A DNA stretch of 64,000 bases, taken from the NCBI GenBank assembly GCA_024408655.1, contig JAKSUV010000001.1:69544-133543 (forward strand), written 5' to 3'. Made by a program: the position numbers and the translations under genes. The stretch comes from Bacilli bacterium. GTDB lineage: Bacteria; Bacillota_I; Bacilli_A; RFN20; CAG-826. Shown in pieces: positions 379 to 63,383 of the stretch. Numbering within the stretch: position 1 is the stretch's first letter; each line of letters begins with the position of its first letter. Under the pieces are notes generated by a model that was not told where the DNA came from, made no database searches, and was given only the letters and a program-made list of their open reading frames with translations.

Positions 379-3300
379 ATGGCACAAAACAAAAAAACTA
401 AAAAAGTCAAAGTAGAAAAGACTAAAACAATTTCAAAGCCTAAAGTTAAACCGGAAGAAGCTCCAAAAATCGAGAAACCGGTGCAAAATGAATCACTAGC
501 GATAGGGAAAATTTTAAATCACTCGAAAAAAGCGGAAGCGACTGAAACGCCACAAGATAAACCTGAACCCAAGGAAGAAGCAGCGGCGAAAGATAGCGAT
601 AAAGCCTCGCGCCGTAAACTTATTAATCGGAAGCCTTTCTTTAATTCGGCTGCTCATCGTTTAGCGCGGCAAATTCTTTTGTGCTTTATTTTTATCTTTA
701 ATATTATTTTCTTATTTGTGCCGTTAAAGATGGCAGATTTTGGCGGTAACGGCATATTAGTCGCTTTATTCTTATATCAATTTAACTCTGCTTTATTTGC
801 TACCACCATTTTAATCGGTGGCACGATTGTAGCGTGTCTTTTGGCTTTGTACCAAACAATTAGGCAGCAAAGAACTAGATCCACCGCACCTTTTATTACA
901 CTAGTGGCTAATGCCTTAGTGTTCTGTTTTAACTCCACAAACGACGCCTTATCAACCGGCATGGTGGTTGTCAATGTATTATCTATGCTTTGTGCTTTAT
1001 CTTTGATTGCTTTAAACATGATTACTTATATTGGCAACCGGGTCGATAAACCAGAAAAGAAGCATACATATTATTTTATTATAAACTGTCTCTCCTTCTT
1101 CATTACCTTGTTATTAATGTTTATTCCGTTTAATTTAGCTAATTCGTCAGGTCTTTTTGTTCCTTCTAACTGGATGCTTGGTTCCTTAATTTACGCTGAC
1201 GGGACCTTTACCTTCTCCTTTGTTGGGGCCTTAGCCTTTACCTTTGCGTTAGTGATTAATCTCGTTTTTCTTGACGGCTGTTTCCGTTATTATTTAGAAA
1301 ATCGCAATGGGTTTGTCAGGCGTTCACAAAACATGATTTCCTATAACCTCTTCTTAACTTTAGGCTTCCTAGTCTTTGCGGTTTTAAAAGTGATTGTGGA
1401 AAACATGACTGGACAAAATCATGATCCGTTTGTGACTGTCTTCTTTCTTCCTTTCTTATTGAACTCGATTTTAATGGTGGTGCAGAATTTTATTATTGGG
1501 CGGAAAGAAAAACCAATTATCCCCTCCTCAGCACGGCCAATTGAAAAGGCGGTCATTAACGCCGAAATTGAACATAACCGAAAGATTAATAACTACCGGG
1601 CCACCTTCTTAGTGACCCAATTCCTCCTCCTTGGTGCGTTAGTGGCGTGCTTTTTTGTGAAGTTCTTAATTGTTTCAGGTAGTAGTGCAGTAGGCGAAAC
1701 TGCTTCTTATAGTTATACGGCTTATGAGTTAATGATGCAATTCGCTACGGGCGATGAAAGCTTCCGCATTGTGGGCTTTATTTTCCTTGTTGTGGCCATT
1801 ACTAATGTTGTGCTTTATATTTTATCGGTTTGCGCGATGCTATCAAACAGTCGCTCTGCTGATAGTTTATGTTATGCCTCTGTCATTGCGTTATGTGGAT
1901 CGGTTAGTTTAATTGGTATTTCCTCTTTATATTATTTAGCTTCTATCCGTTCTTCGCCCCAAATCATTGCCGCCTATTTCCCGCCAGAATTTGCGGAGAA
2001 AATTATTGAATGGCTCAAACAATTTACGGATGCAGTGAAGGTCAGTAACCAAACCCTTGGTCCATGTATAGCCGCAATTGTGGTTGCTTTACTTTTACTT
2101 ATCGCAAAACCACTAACCGCAATTCAAAAGGAAAATGCTCGTTTTGCTTTAGCCCGGAGTGCAACCGCTTTAAGTGCGGGAGCGAATGGCTCAGCCGCGC
2201 CGAGCCAAGATCAAAAAGATGAGGATGCTTCGGAAAAAGTTTCACTGGTGGAAGATAACGCGGTTACTTTCGATGCATGCCCTTCCTTTACGGAACTTGA
2301 TAACAAAAAAGCCGATTTTGATAAAGATGTCGCGTTACGTCGGCAAGGTCTATTCTTAAATCCATCTTTACAAAAACTTGTCACTTTCGTTGTGGATTAC
2401 GCGCGTAATTCTCGTCTCCATTTGTCTTACCAAAAAGAAGATATTGCGACCTTTGTGGCTGGTTTAGGCGCAACCAAATTATCAATCCTCCAAGGTATGT
2501 CTGGAACCGGGAAAACCTCTTTGCCAAAGATTTTCCTCGAAGCCATTTGGGGGAATTGCGAGATTATCGAAATTGAATCTTCTTGGCGGGATAAAAATGA
2601 ACTTTTAGGTTATTATAACGAGTTCTCGCATCTTTATTCGCCGAAGAAATTTACCCGGGCGTTATATAAATCCGCACTCAACCCTGACATTGTGACCTTC
2701 ATCGTTCTAGATGAAATGAACTTAAGCCGCATTGAATACTATTTCTCGGATTTCCTTTCTTTAATGGAAAACGAAGAAGATAAACGCGAGATTCGTTTAC
2801 TCAATAACCAAATCTTTAATACGTATGATAAGGCTTCCCATTCTTATCGCGCCTTAAAAGATAATCACACGATTGTGATTCCCCCGAACGTCTGGTTTGT
2901 GGGTACCGCTAACCGCGACGAATCAACATTTGAAATTTCGGATAAAGTGTATGACCGGGCTTATACGATGAACTTTGATCGTCGGGCACCCGCTATCACG
3001 AGTTATAAAGATCCAATGGATCGTCGTTTCTTAGACTACAAAACCTTTAGAAAACTTTTGTATCATGTTCCAGCGGTTAATTTCTCCATTGAAGAATCGC
3101 CGATTATTAAGGAAGTCGAAAAAGCGCTCGCGCCTTATAACATTTCCTTTGGTAACCGTATCTTACGGCAAATGGAAACCTTCATTAATATTTATTGCAA
3201 CTGCTTCCCTAATCCTAACAGCAAGATTGATGAGGCGTTAGAAACTATCCTCTTAAGCAAAGTAGTACATAAACTTGAATACAAGAACGTGCGGAATAAA

Positions 3301-3381
3301 GAAGAATTACTCCATCTCTTTAAGAAATTAAAACTCAATAAGTGCGTTGAATTTGTTGGTCGTTTAACTGAGGAATTCTAA
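379..3381 (+). CDS. Polytopic membrane protein fused to McrB-like AAA+ ATPase
   Basis: This 1000-residue protein has three parts. Residues 1-90 are a Lys/Glu-rich cytoplasmic tail. Residues about 95-580 hold roughly 11-12 hydrophobic segments. Residues about 660-1000 are an AAA+ module of the McrB/MoxR type, with Walker A GMSGTGKT at 706-713, Walker B LDEMN around 777-781, a sensor-1-like TANRDE around 843-848 and arginines (VYDRAY, FDRR) downstream that could serve as fingers. McrB relatives are normally soluble GTPases, so the large membrane domain is unusual. The stop overlaps the next start (TAATG at 3379-3383), so the two products are probably translated together. The ATPase assignment is firm. 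A role in defence or in membrane remodelling is inference. Confidence 0.85.
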   Translation: MAQNKKTKKVKVEKTKTISKPKVKPEEAPKIEKPVQNESLAIGKILNHSKKAEATETPQDKPEPKEEAAAKDSDKASRRKLINRKPFFNSAAHRLARQILLCFIFIFNIIFLFVPLKMADFGGNGILVALFLYQFNSALFATTILIGGTIVACLLALYQTIRQQRTRSTAPFITLVANALVFCFNSTNDALSTGMVVVNVLSMLCALSLIALNMITYIGNRVDKPEKKHTYYFIINCLSFFITLLLMFIPFNLANSSGLFVPSNWMLGSLIYADGTFTFSFVGALAFTFALVINLVFLDGCFRYYLENRNGFVRRSQNMISYNLFLTLGFLVFAVLKVIVENMTGQNHDPFVTVFFLPFLLNSILMVVQNFIIGRKEKPIIPSSARPIEKAVINAEIEHNRKINNYRATFLVTQFLLLGALVACFFVKFLIVSGSSAVGETASYSYTAYELMMQFATGDESFRIVGFIFLVVAITNVVLYILSVCAMLSNSRSADSLCYASVIALCGSVSLIGISSLYYLASIRSSPQIIAAYFPPEFAEKIIEWLKQFTDAVKVSNQTLGPCIAAIVVALLLLIAKPLTAIQKENARFALARSATALSAGANGSAAPSQDQKDEDASEKVSLVEDNAVTFDACPSFTELDNKKADFDKDVALRRQGLFLNPSLQKLVTFVVDYARNSRLHLSYQKEDIATFVAGLGATKLSILQGMSGTGKTSLPKIFLEAIWGNCEIIEIESSWRDKNELLGYYNEFSHLYSPKKFTRALYKSALNPDIVTFIVLDEMNLSRIEYYFSDFLSLMENEEDKREIRLLNNQIFNTYDKASHSYRALKDNHTIVIPPNVWFVGTANRDESTFEISDKVYDRAYTMNFDRRAPAITSYKDPMDRRFLDYKTFRKLLYHVPAVNFSIEESPIIKEVEKALAPYNISFGNRILRQMETFINIYCNCFPNPNSKIDEALETILLSKVVHKLEYKNVRNKEELLHLFKKLKLNKCVEFVGRLTEEF

Positions 3382-4904
3382 TGCTTGATTACGCGAGCCA
3401 AGAAGAACTCCAAGACATTATTTCTGACTACGATTCTGTGACCGAGTTTGTGAGTCACAACAAGAACATTGCCTTCTATAAGTTCGACCATTATATCGCT
3501 CATAAATTGTCACTTTTTTTGGTGCACGAAACCATCGATTTAAAAGCGATTAAGGCAACCGTTGATTATATTAATCACACTATGCCTTACCTGGTATCAA
3601 TTTTTACTAAGCCCATTATTCATTTAAAAGAAGTCGACGAAATTGTGCCAATTGAAATGGTCCACAAAATTGGTAATGACACGATGACCTACGCGGGGGT
3701 CCATACTGAACTCTGGGACAATTTTACGGCACTAGGTGTCCAACCACGCAAATTACTGACGCAACTCTGCGATAACAATTATCGGATTTACGAAAACCAA
3801 ATTTTTGCCCAAACAGTTGACGATGTCTTGCATTATCTTCGTTGCCGGTTACGCGAAATCCGTAACTTATTATTTGTGTCGGGTAATTTCAATATCAATA
3901 TTTTAGAGAAATTAGATCATCCCAATTATTACACGGCAGTAGGTAAACTCCATTCCGGTTATATCCGGAATTTTAATGATTTTTATACGGCTTTGCCGTT
4001 AAACATTGATATCGCACAAATTTTAGCGGAGATACAAGGCTATCTAAAATTTAATGTTTATAAATATAACGCCCGGCGGAAAAAGCGATTGCAGTTAAAA
4101 CTCACTAATATATTAAAGATGCAAAAGAACTATCACGCGATTTATTTATTAGCCAAAAAGCTTAATTTGATGCGACCGAAGAAGAAACAATTCGCCCCCC
4201 AAACTTTGCAAAAATTTGAACGGGCTTATTTTCATTATTGCATCATCCTCTTGTTATTTACTTTATCCCATTTCGACTTTAACACTACGGATGCGACGAA
4301 AGTTAATTTCCGGGGTGTCAACGCTGAATTTACCAACCAAGGTTGGCATGTTCAAGTCAAACAAGTGACTTCCAATCAACAAAGTGCGATTTTATTAAGT
4401 GTCAAAAAAGATCGGCAATATAAGATATTATTAGTGCCGCAAAATATTACTAGCGACACATCCTTTGTTTATGACAAACGGTTACGGTGTCAAGAGATTG
4501 TTTATTTATCCCCGTTTTCCTCTAACAAAACTAGTTTATATGTTTCCATTACCGACTTTGATTCATTCTTGCGACTTCAACAATTGATTTTTAAGGCCAT
4601 GGTCTATGCCGACAGTAAACATAAGAAATGTCCTTTCTGTGGTCGTGAATTAGTGGCCGATAAAACTACTAAAAACGTTTGGACGTGTCCAGTTTGCCGC
4701 ACCCGAATTCAAAAATGTAAATGTCCCGAGACAAACAAATACTATTACACCACCGCGATTGATGGACTTCATCTTGAACCCTCCCTCCGTAGTGAATATC
4801 TTGATCGTTACGGGCGTTCGAAGAACATGCATTATCGTAACATTACTGATATCACCGCCTATGGCGAAGCTATTTGTCCAGCGTGCGATAAAATCCATGG
4901 ATGA
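3381..4904 (+). CDS. DUF2357-like partner of the AAA+ protein, zinc-ribbon tail
   Basis: This 507-residue soluble protein starts inside the stop codon of the AAA+ gene. Residues about 110-165 (WDNF...GVQPRKLLTQL, then YENQIFAQ...LRCRLREI) resemble the P-R-(x)-L / YEN-(R) helical signature of DUF2357 proteins, which often partner McrB-type ATPases. The C-terminus has four cysteine pairs (CPFC, CPVC, CKC, CPAC), suggesting one or two zinc ribbons that could bind nucleic acid or protein. I see no convincing PD-(D/E)xK nuclease motif, although DUF2357/McrC partners often carry one. The family assignment is by eye. The tight coupling to the ATPase is seen directly. Confidence 0.7.
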   Translation: MLDYASQEELQDIISDYDSVTEFVSHNKNIAFYKFDHYIAHKLSLFLVHETIDLKAIKATVDYINHTMPYLVSIFTKPIIHLKEVDEIVPIEMVHKIGNDTMTYAGVHTELWDNFTALGVQPRKLLTQLCDNNYRIYENQIFAQTVDDVLHYLRCRLREIRNLLFVSGNFNINILEKLDHPNYYTAVGKLHSGYIRNFNDFYTALPLNIDIAQILAEIQGYLKFNVYKYNARRKKRLQLKLTNILKMQKNYHAIYLLAKKLNLMRPKKKQFAPQTLQKFERAYFHYCIILLLFTLSHFDFNTTDATKVNFRGVNAEFTNQGWHVQVKQVTSNQQSAILLSVKKDRQYKILLVPQNITSDTSFVYDKRLRCQEIVYLSPFSSNKTSLYVSITDFDSFLRLQQLIFKAMVYADSKHKKCPFCGRELVADKTTKNVWTCPVCRTRIQKCKCPETNKYYYTTAIDGLHLEPSLRSEYLDRYGRSKNMHYRNITDITAYGEAICPACDKIHG

Positions 4905-8328: not shown

Positions 8329-8729
8329 GGGGTCGTCCTGGTTTCGACAGGATGAGTCCGGATAAGAAATACAGTAGCCTGGTAAACTTAAATACCAAAC
8401 AGAAAATAACTGGCAAAAATTATTCATTTGTGAATGCTCGTACGAGCAATGCACAACTTGCTCTTGCTTAATTTAGCCCTTAATTATTAGGCCGAACCCA
8501 GTTCGGAGAGCACGCTCCCTAAGGTTTGTAGAACCTCACGCTTAGGATCAGTGTCATAACAAGGTTTTGTAGGGTGGGTGATGATTATAAATCTATCCCG
8601 AAGCTAAATAATCTAGCCTAGATTGATTCCGCTAGTAGATAGGTCTAGGTAAAGTAAGTGCTAGATAAACTGGACATGTTCTTATGTGGTCCTTCTTGGA
8701 CAGGGGTTCAACTCCCCTCGACTCCACCA
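8329..8729 (+). ncRNA. ssrA: Transfer-messenger RNA
   Basis: This is a one-piece tmRNA of 401 nt. The 5' end GGGGTCG pairs over 7 bp (one G-U) with CGACTCC near the 3' end, and the molecule ends in an encoded CCA (8727-8729). The tRNA-like part has the 5' GG-TTCGACA block and a T-arm AGGGG-TTCAA-CCCCT. The tag reading frame starts at GGC 8412 and ends at TAA 8469-8471. It encodes GKNYSFVNARTSNAQLALA after the charged alanine, 19 codons with the usual hydrophobic degradation end, here ALA. tmRNA with SmpB rescues stalled ribosomes and tags the product for proteolysis. Confidence 0.97.
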
Positions 8730-10531: not shown

Positions 10532-12886
10532 ATGAAAAGGTTACAATATTGTTTAGTGCCGTTAATGGCAATGTCTTTTTTAGTTAATTGTGGTGGCGGA
10601 GATAAACCCACTCAGACTTATACAATTAGGATTAACGAAACAACAAATCATTTTACCCCTGAACAATCTACATTTACATTTAAGGAAAACGTGTTTGATC
10701 CTATCGAAGTATCTTATACCACTGATGAAGGTTATATAGTGACTAAAACTAAAGCAACTATTGAAAAAAGTTACTGCGATTTTAACACCGATGAGAAGAA
10801 ATTAATTATTTATCCTAAAGTCAACCAAAATTTTGAAATTAATGTATCTGTTACGCATCTTGACCAAGTGCACTACATTAAGATTGTTGATCCGCTATCT
10901 TCACATTTGACGATTAAAAAAAGAACAATACCTTTTCGAAAAGATGATTTTGATGAAGTTTATTTTCCTTTTGAAATTGATGGTTATTGTTCAGTTAAAG
11001 CAACCCCCAAAAGCGAAACAGGCCAATGTGAAGTAAAAGTGGAAGATAAAAAAATAGTTGTTACTCCCAAAGAGAATGCCAATATTGACATAGAAACAAG
11101 TGTGACCGAGGAATATAAAACAATTACCTTTAATGTTGTTGAAGATGGCGCAAAATTAGGTGATGAAGCAAAAACCACGATTATAATGCCTTACGGTAAG
11201 ACTTGGGGTGAATGTGTAGATAAAACCAAACAAGTAGCGATTTTTGGCGAACGTGATTTTAAAGGTTGGTCATTTAATAACGTTGTCCCCAACACCGGAA
11301 TTATTAGAAATGATTATAAGATAGATGAGTCTACGAATGAAAATGTTTATGCAGTTTTCTATCATAAAATTGAATTAACTAGTAAATCAACCGAGATTGA
11401 TCAACAAATCTATAGTCTTGACGATCATAAAATGTTTCTATACCTCGGGCTCAAGAATACTGGAAAATACGTTGTGCCTCAACAGCAAGATTTTACTATT
11501 CATGATTCATCGGGAATACCTATTACGTTTAGTTATTTCTATAGTGGCGGTACAATAACTATTACTTTTGAAAATTATGAAAATATTGAGCAAGACATAA
11601 TTTATATATTTGTAAGGGATAAGCAGCCAGAGTTTACTTTTACTTCTAATCTCGACGAACATCTAACATGCGATTGCGACGGAGACGTTCCAATTAAAAA
11701 AGGTGAAAATGTTATTTTCACTCTTACAGCAATTAATCAAACAAACGATGTTGTCTATATTGCCCCTTATGAGGTTGACATCACAATCGGCGGTTCGCCA
11801 GTCAGTTCGAAATCTTACAGAATAAAAGATATCAGTAAGAATCAAGATCGGACTAAAGTTGAAGTTATGATATTTGGTAGTTATGTTCAGGGCGATGTTG
11901 TTGTTACTGCCAAGGCGGATACTACGGGTGGTTATCGTTATAAAGTTTTGGGATATAATGTTACAATTCAAGGAGAAACAAGCGGCACTACAACTTATAC
12001 GAGTTCTTTGAATATTAAATTTGATGGTAGTGAAATACGTACTGAAAGGATTTTCATAAAGATAGACAACGCGAATTGGTATGCTTGTGATGCTTTACCT
12101 TCACCATATAATCAATTCATATCTTATGATCCAAATGCTAAAACAATAACGATTGCGGCAAGCGATCAAAACCAAATTGGTTCTATTGAATTTCACATTT
12201 TCGATGGTACATACATAGTTTTTGCTCACGAGAATTGGGATTTAATTGAAGAATTATCTTCTTTGCCTGCTGACTATGTTAATAGATTGTTTCAAGTAGG
12301 CGATTATAGACCGCAAGGTGTGAAGGACTTTCCATATGCATTGCGAATCGTTGATATGTATCACGACAATTTGGCAAATTCTAATCAAAAAGCTACACTT
12401 TCAATAGAATTTGAGAGCCTAATTACTGAAGAAAACGAAGCTTTAGTGAAACATTATTCTGATCGATCAGACTACGCTTGTTATAAAAACGGACCGCTAG
12501 ACTGTTATCTTAAAACTGAATTTAAAGAAACATTCCCGCTTTCACTACAACTTGCAATCAAACCCGTTATAAAAACGGTTTGCTGCATGGACGAGGACCT
12601 GCCGTTTGATATCAATTATCCTATAGATGTTTTCGCCCCATCGATTAATGAACTTTATGAGGATGGCGATTTTTCTGATGGGAGTGTTTATCGATATCAT
12701 AAAGAACATATTGGGTCAGTAAAAAAGCATCCTCTTGGATCTACGGATAATATTGACTATTGGTCGCGTTCGTGTTCTCACTCTCCTATCACTGCTACTG
12801 AAGGAATATGTGTTGACGATAATGGTGAAAGTCAGTATACACCAGCTCATTTCGATAAAGGTATTTTAGCAGCGTTCTGTATTTAA
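10532..12886 (+). CDS. Large surface lipoprotein, unknown ligand
   Basis: This 784-residue protein has a signal peptide and lipobox (LVNC, Cys 20). Residues about 30-110 and 112-195 look like two related beta-rich modules, each ending in a KK-I-x-x-x-P-K-x-N...V strand pattern. The rest is beta-strand-like with no motif I can name. TATAAT at 10504-10509 and a purine stretch AAAGG at 10518-10522 precede the ATG at 10532; another ATG at 10528 is out of frame. Likely an exported surface protein of the same broad class as 4950-6686. Confidence 0.75.
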   Translation: MKRLQYCLVPLMAMSFLVNCGGGDKPTQTYTIRINETTNHFTPEQSTFTFKENVFDPIEVSYTTDEGYIVTKTKATIEKSYCDFNTDEKKLIIYPKVNQNFEINVSVTHLDQVHYIKIVDPLSSHLTIKKRTIPFRKDDFDEVYFPFEIDGYCSVKATPKSETGQCEVKVEDKKIVVTPKENANIDIETSVTEEYKTITFNVVEDGAKLGDEAKTTIIMPYGKTWGECVDKTKQVAIFGERDFKGWSFNNVVPNTGIIRNDYKIDESTNENVYAVFYHKIELTSKSTEIDQQIYSLDDHKMFLYLGLKNTGKYVVPQQQDFTIHDSSGIPITFSYFYSGGTITITFENYENIEQDIIYIFVRDKQPEFTFTSNLDEHLTCDCDGDVPIKKGENVIFTLTAINQTNDVVYIAPYEVDITIGGSPVSSKSYRIKDISKNQDRTKVEVMIFGSYVQGDVVVTAKADTTGGYRYKVLGYNVTIQGETSGTTTYTSSLNIKFDGSEIRTERIFIKIDNANWYACDALPSPYNQFISYDPNAKTITIAASDQNQIGSIEFHIFDGTYIVFAHENWDLIEELSSLPADYVNRLFQVGDYRPQGVKDFPYALRIVDMYHDNLANSNQKATLSIEFESLITEENEALVKHYSDRSDYACYKNGPLDCYLKTEFKETFPLSLQLAIKPVIKTVCCMDEDLPFDINYPIDVFAPSINELYEDGDFSDGSVYRYHKEHIGSVKKHPLGSTDNIDYWSRSCSHSPITATEGICVDDNGESQYTPAHFDKGILAAFCI

Positions 12887-13153
12887 TTGAGACGAGCAAT
12901 ATTTTGCTATAACTTGACGTTTTATTAAACTCGCTTTAGGCATTGATATAATTAATGGTGCTATTAGTTAGCATATGATAAAAACCTCTATTTAAATTAA
13001 CTAAAATAATCATTTTTTTAATAAAAATATAAAAATTTTTATTCTCCTAAAACATCGATGATTACTGCTAAATTAGGATAATTTAGAATTATTTTAAAAA
13101 ATTATTTAAAAAATAATTTGCATTATTTATATATAGTAGTAACATTATACATG
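12887..13153 (+). other. AT-rich spacer upstream of the structured RNA
   Basis: No ORF is seen here. It is very A/T-rich, with A/T palindromes at about 13020-13043 and at 13100-13118 (AATTATTT-AAA-AAATAATT). A -35-like TTGCAT at 13118-13123 and -10-like sequence at 13143-13151 (CATTATACA) could form the promoter of the RNA that follows, but the spacing is not ideal. The palindrome may act as an UP element or operator. Confidence 0.4.
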
Positions 13154-13705
13154 CTCAGCAAAAAGGAGCTGCCTAAGACAAGATCTGGTGCTGAGGGTAG
13201 AAAGAGTTCCACGTTGACCCGTTGATAGATGAGTCAAAGCCATCTACTTATTATATAAATAGGTGAGAGCTAACAGTGGTTAGCGAAAACGCGAGAGAAG
13301 AGGGTTAAAAGCCTCACGAAACCTAGTGTGTCAGCTAGGTGGTAGCTAGTTTAAGAAGAAAACACCCGCGAAAAGCTACAAATATGTAGTGGAGTGGAGC
13401 AAGGAACCACAATAAAAAAGAGCTTGAGGTAGCAGTGTACTACCTAGTAAGCGGAGGATGTTGTAAGACCGCTAAGAACAATAACATCCATACATAATCA
13501 ACTCGCCAATGAGCTAGCGAGTAACAAAAAGGCGCATGATCCTACCTGGCAGCATGGATAAGTTGCCACCGCCACCTAGAAGCGGGTAATAAGAAAACTA
13601 GGCGAAAGAGACCGCAACAAAATAAACCTATGTCAGCGTTGATTGCTGATATAGAGTGCGGGGAAGAAGATAGATAAGTAGCGAGAGTAATCTCGCTTTT
13701 TATTT
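13154..13705 (+). ncRNA. Large structured non-coding RNA, ROOL-like candidate
   Basis: About 550 nt without a long ORF fold into a chain of clean helices. These are 13154-13160/13189-13195, 13214-13218/13233-13237, 13269-13274/13279-13284, 13321-13326/13335-13340, 13342-13347/13374-13379, 13427-13432/13440-13445, 13501-13506/13517-13522 and 13628-13637/13645-13654. It ends in an intrinsic terminator. Two helix pairs interlock as possible pseudoknots (13451-13489 and 13575-13615). Length, an independent transcription unit and absence of coding fit the ornate large RNAs ROOL, GOLLD and OLE. ROOL (about 580 nt, known in gut and rumen Firmicutes) is the closest by size and host; that name is inference. 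It lacks the RNase P core motif and group I or II intron cores. Confidence 0.75.
13680..13705 (+). terminator. Intrinsic terminator of the large RNA
   Basis: Perfect 7-bp arms AGCGAGA (13680-13686) and TCTCGCT (13691-13697) with a GTAA tetraloop are followed by TTTTTATTTTT. This fixes the 3' end of the structured RNA. Confidence 0.9.
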
Positions 13706-13764
13706 TTCTCTTACATAAAATTTTATCGATAGTAGAATATAGATAGAATCAATAAGGAGATCTT

Positions 13765-14406
13765 ATGAGAAAAGTAATTGGAAAAATTTTAATAATTGTT
13801 TCACTTGGTTGCGTGGCACTAGCGTTTGCCTCGCTCTTTTTGCCATTAAAAGTTAATTTCACTGTATTCGATGATCTAACCGACAAAGATATAATACTTG
13901 GTACGGGTACCGTCACATCTTTATTCACATGTCTATTATGTTTGCCTTGCAAGATTATTTGTAATTTAGATGCAAAATATGGCGGTGGACAAATAACTGA
14001 TTCTTATCGTATGAATATACTAGGTAATAGAGCCTCGCTTCCGGGATTAATACAGTTTTTTGTTATTGCTGCATTGATTATCTGTGCAGTTATTGTACTT
14101 ATTCTCCTTTTAGCAAATAAATTTAATGGCAAGAAGAAAGTGTTTTTATCAATTCTCTTTTTATTCTTCTTAGTGGTCACTACTGCTAGCATGTTGTTTG
14201 AAACAGCGATAGTTGATCTAAACGCTAAAGGGAATTTTGAACAAGAGGGTATACAATACATTAGAATGAAGGGCATCGCGACGGCACCAATTTGTTACAT
14301 GCTATGCGGCGCTGCTGCACTTGTTATTAATGTCGTCGGTTTAATTCTTATTCGTGGTGATAAGAAAACGAAAGTCAAAGCTAATCCAGCAAATAAAAAT
14401 AAGTAA
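13765..14406 (+). CDS. Membrane protein, unknown function
   Basis: A 213-residue protein with about four to five hydrophobic segments (near residues 5-28, 45-65, 92-116, 124-145 and 178-200), a basic C-terminal tail and a long loop after the first helix. AAGGAG at 13757-13762 sets the start. It lies 60 bp after the large RNA's terminator and has its own ribosome site. I looked for the OapA pattern (paired RxxxD motifs) that would link it to OLE RNA and do not see it. Confidence 0.7.
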   Translation: MRKVIGKILIIVSLGCVALAFASLFLPLKVNFTVFDDLTDKDIILGTGTVTSLFTCLLCLPCKIICNLDAKYGGGQITDSYRMNILGNRASLPGLIQFFVIAALIICAVIVLILLLANKFNGKKKVFLSILFLFFLVVTTASMLFETAIVDLNAKGNFEQEGIQYIRMKGIATAPICYMLCGAAALVINVVGLILIRGDKKTKVKANPANKNK

Positions 14407-62746: not shown

Positions 62747-62757
62747 TTTTATAATAC

Positions 62758-62832
62758 TTTTGGGAGCTAGGAAACTGGCTGAGAGGGCGCGAAGCCGACC
62801 ATACCTGATCTAGGTAATGCTAGCGGAGGGAA
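62758..62832 (+). promoter_or_regulatory. TPP riboswitch
   Basis: Conserved THI-box blocks are seen in order: GGGAGCTA, CTGAGAGGG (62778-62786), GACC-ATACCTGATCT and GGTAATGCTAGCGGAGGGA. The end of the aptamer, GGAGGG (62825-62830), is also the thiT ribosome site, so TPP binding would hide the SD and block translation; no separate terminator is visible. Confidence 0.95.
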
Positions 62833-62834
62833 AA

Positions 62835-63383
62835 ATGAATAAATACACAATTCGAGATATTACCGAAATCGCTATCTTCAGTGCTATCGCGATTGTTTTA
62901 AATTTACCTGTCTTTAAAATTCATATTGCTTCGGACGCTGGTTCAATTTCTTTTACGATGGTTCCTTTATTTATCATCGCGATTCGTCATAGTTGGTGGA
63001 AAAGCTTAATCGCTAGTAGCGTGGTCTATGGTCTTATCGCTTGTTTGATCGGCGGACACGGCATCATTACTTATCCACTTGATTACGCGTTAGCTTATAG
63101 TGGTGTCGTTTTTATTTCACTTATGAATAAAAAGATCTTAGCGGAGAACAAAATGAGTTATGTTTATCTATTCCTCGCTTCTTTATTAGCGGTTTTACTC
63201 CGCTACATCGCTTCGACCTTATCAAGTATCTTTCTTTATGATTTAGCGTTTGTACCTGCGCTAGTATATAACGCCCCGTATATTTTTATATCAGGAGCAA
63301 TTGCGATTACTATATCTTTATTGCTTTTAAAACCACTAAAAATTATTAACCAAAAGTATCCAAAGATAAAAGAAATACAATAA
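62835..63383 (+). CDS. thiT: ThiT thiamine transporter S-component
   Basis: A 182-residue membrane protein with six helices of the ThiT (YuaJ) family, which binds thiamine for ECF uptake. The start is 62835, since the earlier ATG at 62817 lies in the riboswitch core. The TPP riboswitch fixes its substrate. The energising EcfAAT module is not in this window. Confidence 0.93.
   Translation: MNKYTIRDITEIAIFSAIAIVLNLPVFKIHIASDAGSISFTMVPLFIIAIRHSWWKSLIASSVVYGLIACLIGGHGIITYPLDYALAYSGVVFISLMNKKILAENKMSYVYLFLASLLAVLLRYIASTLSSIFLYDLAFVPALVYNAPYIFISGAIAITISLLLLKPLKIINQKYPKIKEIQ

What the first reader, a model, noticed from the sequence alone, without database searches (positions are those of the whole stretch)
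13154..13705. A 0.55-kb structured RNA gene, ROOL-like candidate
No ORF, eight or more exact helices, and a strong terminator define an independent large RNA. Size and likely host fit ROOL, one of the few giant bacterial RNAs, whose function is unknown. ROOL is often found near tRNAs or phage genes; here neither is near, so a chromosomal copy between a lipoprotein and a membrane protein gene would be informative.
Basis: partly seen in the sequence, partly recalled or inferred. Interest (0 to 1): 0.78.

Follow-up and report, generated by a model that had tools for sequence, protein, structure and literature searches.

The report
New large structured RNA, not ROOL
Between two ordinary genes of an uncultured horse-gut bacterium lies a gene for a roughly 550-letter RNA that folds into an elaborate, evolutionarily preserved shape, makes no protein, matches no known RNA family and sits in different chromosomal places in related species, so it appears to be a new kind of large bacterial RNA whose job is unknown.

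Summary
In detail: window ~13152-13706 (+) is an independent structured RNA gene. It has no ORF over 35 aa, folds at z -5.4 and ends in a terminator. Three of four other genomes of the genus carry it (99%, 73%, and one contig-cut copy). The G000/G001 alignment folds far better than column shuffles (z -9.6; coding controls -0.1 to -2.4). I list 18 helices plus one invariant tertiary pairing, with three pseudoknot-type contacts; 27 compensatory pairs are kept outside register-ambiguous P1. Downstream genes differ between species, so it acts in trans. The ROOL label fails: no Rfam family matches, whereas the ROOL model scores 130 bits on the real L. salivarius ROOL. RNase P and tmRNA are present separately. 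Covariance models found no credible match outside the genus. The gene lies beside malic enzyme in two species and beside tuf in two others, once next to a CptIN toxin-antitoxin pair, so it is an accessory gene that changes place. Best reading: a new, genus-restricted class of large ornate RNA acting as a folded RNA or RNP scaffold. The function is inferred, not shown.

The parts
13118..13145 (+). candidate promoter: -35 TTGCAT (13118-13123), 16-nt spacer, -10 TAACAT (13140-13145; TAATAT in G003 and G001)
   Evidence: conserved in G003 and G001 (17-nt spacer in G001) while the flanking sequence diverges; the consensus scan did not flag it; inference
13152..13706 (+). structured RNA gene (approximate transcript, about 555 nt)
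   Evidence: folding z -5.35; G000/G001 consensus z -9.55 against -0.1 to -2.4 for coding controls; homologues
13154..13195 (+). P1: CUCAGC 13154-13159 / GCUGAG 13190-13195
   Evidence: in G001 the helix forms in a slipped register
13205..13515 (+). P2: long-range helix 13205-13209 / 13511-13515 (3' strand lies in the loop of P13)
   Evidence: A-U to G-C compensatory change in G001
13214..13237 (+). P3: 13214-13218 / 13233-13237
   Evidence: 4 compensatory changes
13241..13265 (+). P4: 13241-13244 / 13262-13265
   Evidence: 2 one-sided changes kept
13269..13284 (+). P5: GCUAAC / GUUAGC
   Evidence: 1 compensatory change
13300..13315 (+). P6: GAGG / CCUC around loop GUUAAAAG
   Evidence: UGCC / GGCA in G001
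13321..13340 (+). P7: 13321-13327 / 13334-13340
   Evidence: 3 compensatory changes
13375..13390 (+). P8: GCUACA / UGUAGU
   Evidence: 3 compensatory changes
13400..13426 (+). P9: CAAG / CUUG closing a conserved A-rich loop (GAACCAcAAUAAAAAAGAG)
   Evidence: CGGC / GCCG in G001, 3 compensatory changes
13427..13445 (+). P10: AGGUAG / CUACCU
   Evidence: mostly unchanged in G001: one one-sided change kept, one end pair broken
13450..13489 (+). P11/P12 H-type pseudoknot: 13450-13454 / 13469-13473 and 13456-13462 / 13483-13489
   Evidence: compensatory changes in both stems
13496..13644 (+). P19 tertiary pairing: AAUCAA 13496-13501 with UUGAUU 13639-13644 in the loop of P18 (within or between molecules)
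   Evidence: invariant in G000, G003 and G001; no covariation available
13503..13520 (+). P13: UCGC / GCGA hairpin
   Evidence: invariant
13547..13568 (+). P14: UGGCAGC / GUUGCCA
   Evidence: C-G to U-A in G001 and G004
13569..13601 (+). P15 (13569-13572 / 13582-13585) and pseudoknot P16 from its loop (13576-13579 / 13598-13601)
   Evidence: compensatory changes in both
13612..13661 (+). P17/P18: closing stem CCGCA / UGCGG and 10-bp hairpin with loop GUUGAUU; most conserved module, followed by GGGGAAGAAG
   Evidence: alignment A3; U-A to U-G in G004
13680..13705 (+). intrinsic terminator AGCGAGAGUAAUCUCGCU + UUUUUAUUUUU (the repeat is symmetrical)

Best explanation
This is a stand-alone, trans-acting structured RNA gene: own promoter, about 555-nt RNA, own terminator. 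It is the first seen example of a family confined, as far as could be searched, to one genus of uncultured gut Bacilli. The RNA folds into a compact multi-helix structure with at least three pseudoknot-type contacts, joined by conserved A-rich single strands. It is an accessory gene found at different chromosomal loci in different species. The function is inferred: most likely it is a folded RNA that works as a scaffold or particle (RNA-only oligomer or RNP), in the manner of ROOL, GOLLD and OLE but unrelated in sequence. Probability of each step: real structured RNA gene 0.97; trans-acting rather than cis-regulatory 0.92; no known family 0.9; scaffold or ornate type of function 0.45.
For: Folding z -5.35 and -3.96 in two homologues. 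Consensus z -9.55, or -8.29 without the terminator, against -0.13 to -2.43 for coding DNA from the same genome pair. 32 double changes keep pairing and 1 breaks it (27 kept without P1) across 19 listed pairings. In 14 of these helices 71 of 74 pairs form in G001 in register against 16-32 when one strand is slid. 99.3% identity to G003, where the adjacent coding genes are 92-98%; of the four substitutions three are in unpaired positions and one turns the outermost A-U of P7 into G-U. No Rfam match. RNase P is elsewhere in the genome and tmRNA at 8329-8729. The downstream gene differs: membrane protein in G000/G003, CptIN in G001, convergent glf in G004. Sites differ: G000's tuf locus and G001's malic-enzyme locus lack it.
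Against: Only two well-diverged full-length sequences exist, so covariation is pairwise and part of the helix list was curated by hand. Expression has not been observed. No partner gene, conserved neighbour or target points to a function. The sigma-70-like promoter is weak by consensus.
Confidence: 0.5

Rival explanations
1. It is a divergent ROOL (or GOLLD/OLE) RNA that the Rfam models are too narrow to catch.
For: Similar length (ROOL model 574 positions), many pseudoknots, gut Bacilli host, accessory placement.
Against: No RF03087 match at E<=10, while the model rings at 130 bits on L. salivarius. The ROOL consensus segments printed (ACAAUAGACG, GUAUAACAC) are absent. No tRNA island or phage genes near.
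Confidence: 0.06
2. It is a cis-acting leader or riboswitch of the downstream gene.
For: The 213-aa membrane protein starts about 60 nt after the terminator on the same strand in G000 and G003.
Against: In G001 the next gene is a CptIN toxin with its own repeat antitoxin, and in G004 a convergent glf; the terminator closes the unit in all; 555 nt is far beyond usual aptamers; no riboswitch family match.
Confidence: 0.04
3. It is an accessory defence or stability RNA (an RNA antitoxin, decoy or antisense element) carried in variable loci like other defence genes.
For: It changes place between species and in G001 sits directly before a CptIN type III toxin-antitoxin pair.
Against: It has no tandem repeats; the CptIN pair has its own 2.9-copy repeat; no toxin is seen beside it in G000, G003 or G004.
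Confidence: 0.15
4. It is a ribozyme or an RNA component of a ribonucleoprotein enzyme (a protein-binding RNA like RNase P).
For: Highly conserved unpaired stretches (GGCGAAAGAGACCG, AAAACGCGAGAGA, CCCGCGAAAAG) beside covarying helices.
Against: No Rfam match to ribozymes or introns; the gene is not inside another gene; RNase P exists separately.
Confidence: 0.2
5. The pattern is chance: a GC-rich intergenic stretch without function.
For: Genus-restricted; no expression data.
Against: Consensus z -9.55 and 27-32 compensatory pairs; stronger conservation than neighbouring coding genes.
Confidence: 0.02

Closest known systems
ROOL RNA (RF03087)
   Same: Size about 550-660 nt, stand-alone gene, multiple pseudoknots, gut-associated Bacilli, no obvious protein partner, accessory placement (ROOL features from PMC12286853)
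   Different: No detectable sequence or covariance-model similarity (against positive control); no phage genes or tRNA island seen
GOLLD and OLE RNAs
   Same: Large, ornate, elaborate conserved secondary structure
   Different: No Rfam match at E<=10; GOLLD is phage-linked and larger; OLE sits with conserved protein partners (own knowledge; not tested)
Bacterial RNase P and tmRNA
   Same: Large A-rich structured housekeeping RNAs with pseudoknots
   Different: Both are present separately in this genome; this RNA is genus-restricted and changes location
Type III toxin-antitoxin RNA (CptIN)
   Same: RNA with pseudoknots in an accessory locus; a CptIN pair is adjacent in G001
   Different: Not repetitive, no linked toxin in three of four genomes; the CptIN pair has its own repeat RNA

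Membership tests
ROOL (RF03087) | match to the Rfam covariance model | tested here: not met
   no match at E<=10 or in homologues at E<=3; same model 130.4 bits on L. salivarius pMP118
ROOL (RF03087) | often in phages/prophages near tRNA islands | tested here: not met
   no tRNA in the window; neighbours are metabolic, membrane or lipoprotein genes
ROOL (RF03087) | elaborate secondary structure with multiple pseudoknots | tested here: met
   18 helices plus one tertiary pairing; pseudoknots P11/P12, P15/P16 and P2 into the P13 loop with compensatory changes
ROOL (RF03087) | octameric RNA-only nanocage | not testable with these tools
   needs mass photometry or cryo-EM
GOLLD / OLE | match to the Rfam covariance models | tested here: not met
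   whole-library scan at E<=10; no separate positive control was run for these two models
RNase P RNA | covariance-model match / sole rnpB of the genome | tested here: not met
   no match here; RF00010 matches G000:C1:171797-172130, E 3.7e-19
Group I/II intron or other curated ribozyme | covariance-model match | tested here: not met
Riboswitch / cis-leader | conserved downstream gene | tested here: not met
   downstream gene differs between species
Type III antitoxin RNA | tandem 35-50-nt repeats next to a ToxN/CptN/TenpN toxin | tested here: not met
   in G001 no tandem array lies within the RNA; the repeat belongs to the separate CptIN unit at L034 5613-5738; no toxin beside the RNA in G000, G003 or G004

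The most novel reading that the evidence does not exclude
This is a new class of ornate RNA that assembles, without protein, into a defined multimeric particle (cage or ring) in uncultured gut Bacilli. It would have arisen or spread independently of ROOL and GOLLD, and the conserved AAUCAA/UUGAUU pairing could be one of its between-molecule contacts.
Probability: 0.15. Interest if true: 0.88.

Novelty: new variant of a known kind. Interest (0 to 1): 0.62.

Why it matters
Few bacterial RNAs above 500 nt with elaborate conserved structure are known, and three of them (ROOL, GOLLD, OLE) turned out to form unexpected RNA-only assemblies of poorly understood function. A further, unrelated class of the same size, restricted to one genus and changing place in the chromosome, would show that such RNAs arise and spread more easily than thought. 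It also gives a small, directly testable molecule for asking whether ornate RNAs generally oligomerise.

Tried and rejected
Viral contigs: eight exact-pattern scans of conserved motifs gave 3, 7, 0, 4, 1, 0, 8 and 0 hits. None showed wider similarity: L036-L038 do not align with the RNA, L039/L040/L042 are phage coding DNA by reading, and L077-L081 and L093-L100 give only short local scores. Weak model hits in relatives: R1 hits L070-L073, L075 and L076 overlap open frames and L074 looks like 16S rRNA by its letters; R2 hit L085 looks like a T-box leader by its letters and L086-L089 overlap open frames. The one phylum-level R1 hit, E 0.002, is inside 23S rRNA. Weak Rfam scores (PrrB_RsmZ 18-27 bits against a gathering score of 44; others) are below the gathering scores, and PrrB_RsmZ covers the terminator half only. 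Phage and plasmid collections gave only short matches. Alignment A1 was made with wrong strands for two rows and was redone. Searches for ROOL across relatives failed technically. Rejected as identities: RNase P, tmRNA, riboswitch, intron, type III antitoxin, ROOL membership.

Full report
WHAT IS THERE. The window is G000:C1:69544-133543 of a 0.91-Mb, 10-contig, 67%-complete genome. Between a lipoprotein gene (10532-12886) and a membrane-protein gene (13765-14406) lies a stretch that is 40-49% GC, where the DNA just upstream is 15-16%. It has no ORF above 35 aa, folds at z -5.35, and ends in an intrinsic terminator at 13680-13705.

HOMOLOGUES. blastn against 144 relatives found G003 (99%), G001 (73% over the whole length) and G004 (82% over the last 180 nt, cut by the contig end). 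Nothing was found in G002 (81% complete) or beyond the genus; the other matches are short, and those inspected were terminator-like or chance. The match between G000 and G001 covers the RNA and a short -35/-10 region upstream, and stops after the terminator. This marks the unit: promoter at about 13118-13145, transcript about 13152-13706.

STRUCTURE. The G000/G001 consensus energy is -267.6 against -185.2 (sd 8.6) for column shuffles, z -9.55. Without the terminator z is -8.29. Coding segments from the same genome pair at 69-88% identity give -0.13 to -2.43. An automatic search for stems that pair in both sequences gives P3, P8 and P7 as the top three (4, 3 and 3 compensatory pairs); the same search with strands run in parallel gives 1 stem with 3 or more. 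With the alignment adjusted by hand I list 18 helices plus one tertiary pairing: 32 double changes keep pairing and 1 breaks it. P1 slips register, so 27 is the safer count. Sliding one strand of 14 helices drops pairing from 71/74 to 16-32/74 in G001. The hand list is biased towards pairing; the shuffle test is not. Three contacts are of pseudoknot type and carry compensatory changes: P11/P12, P16 from the loop of P15, and P2 into the loop of P13. AAUCAA 13496-13501 and the loop UUGAUU 13639-13644 are complementary and invariant, within or between molecules.

SELECTION. Between G000 and G003 the RNA is 99.3% identical (4 substitutions and a 2-nt insertion). The neighbouring coding genes are 92.4-97.6%.

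LOCATION. In G000 and G003 the RNA lies between a 2-oxoacid acyltransferase-like gene and malic enzyme; G000 has an additional 784-aa lipoprotein gene upstream that G003 lacks there. In G001 it lies between an N-acyltransferase gene and tuf, directly before a CptIN type III toxin-antitoxin pair (toxin NF047359, 1.8e-50; 2.9-copy repeat at L034 5613-5738). In G004 it is next to a convergent glf-like gene (named by reading, not by a family search) and then tuf. G000's tuf locus has the same N-acyltransferase and kinase genes but no RNA, and G001's malic-enzyme locus has membrane-protein genes but no RNA. So the gene changes place and its downstream gene is not conserved. A cis-regulatory role is therefore unlikely. 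No mobile-element ends were noticed at its borders, though this was not searched exhaustively.

WHAT IT IS NOT. Rfam 15 gives nothing in the region at gathering scores, at E<=10 nothing near a family's gathering score, and in the homologues only a sub-threshold PrrB_RsmZ score over the terminator half. The positive control works: ROOL is found at 130.4 bits in L. salivarius pMP118 at the published lncRNA locus (locus from PMC5643018). RNase P is elsewhere (62.6 bits, E 3.7e-19, below the family's gathering score). tmRNA is at 8329-8729.

RANGE. Model R1 (3' module) found only the four known copies as credible matches in 224 family and 279 order genomes, and only the window's own copy in 395 class and 392 phylum genomes drawn evenly. 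Model R2 (5' module) found only three copies in the family. The larger collections were searched only with exact patterns (genome contigs once; viral contigs eight times), so distant relatives could be missed. Metagenomes were not available.

HOW IT MOST LIKELY WORKS. Shown: a conserved, structured, non-coding gene unit with variable neighbours. Inferred: it acts in trans. Inferred with less certainty: it is a folded scaffold or particle-forming RNA, since covarying helices are joined by conserved A-rich single strands (for example AAUAAAAAAGA, CGCGAAAAG, GGCGAAAGAGACCG), as expected for A-minor packing. ROOL, GOLLD and OLE are the natural comparison (PMC12286853); ROOL there is described as phage-linked, near tRNA islands and with multiple pseudoknots. 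I give about 0.45 to a scaffold or ornate role, 0.2 to an RNP-enzyme or ribozyme role and 0.15 to an accessory defence or stability role.

VERDICT. The most economical description is a new genus-restricted class of large structured RNA.

Noticed in passing
L034:5613-6234: A complete CptIN type III toxin-antitoxin locus (2.9 tandem repeats of about 45 nt, toxin NF047359 at 1.8e-50) directly downstream of the RNA in G001.
   Followed up: partly
window 8329-8729: tmRNA gene with tag peptide GKNYSFVNARTSNAQLALA.
   Followed up: no
window 62750-62849: TPP riboswitch, 56.8 bits (Rfam RF00059).
   Followed up: no
G000:C1:171797-172130 (L032): RNase P RNA matches RF00010 at only 62.6 bits, below the gathering score of 100: a diverged rnpB.
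   Followed up: no
window 10532-12886: 784-aa lipoprotein-like gene (DUF6273 at its end) present in G000 but absent from the same place in G003, where the acyltransferase gene adjoins the RNA.
   Followed up: partly
window 379-4904: A conserved two-gene unit (1000-aa membrane protein whose C-terminal part looks AAA/McrB-like by eye, and a 507-aa partner without Pfam match) that also occurs in G004 (L035 5995-10592).
   Followed up: partly
G004:C6 end and G002:C22 end: Assemblies break inside the RNA in G004 and just upstream of tuf in G002, so presence in G002 cannot be excluded.
   Followed up: no
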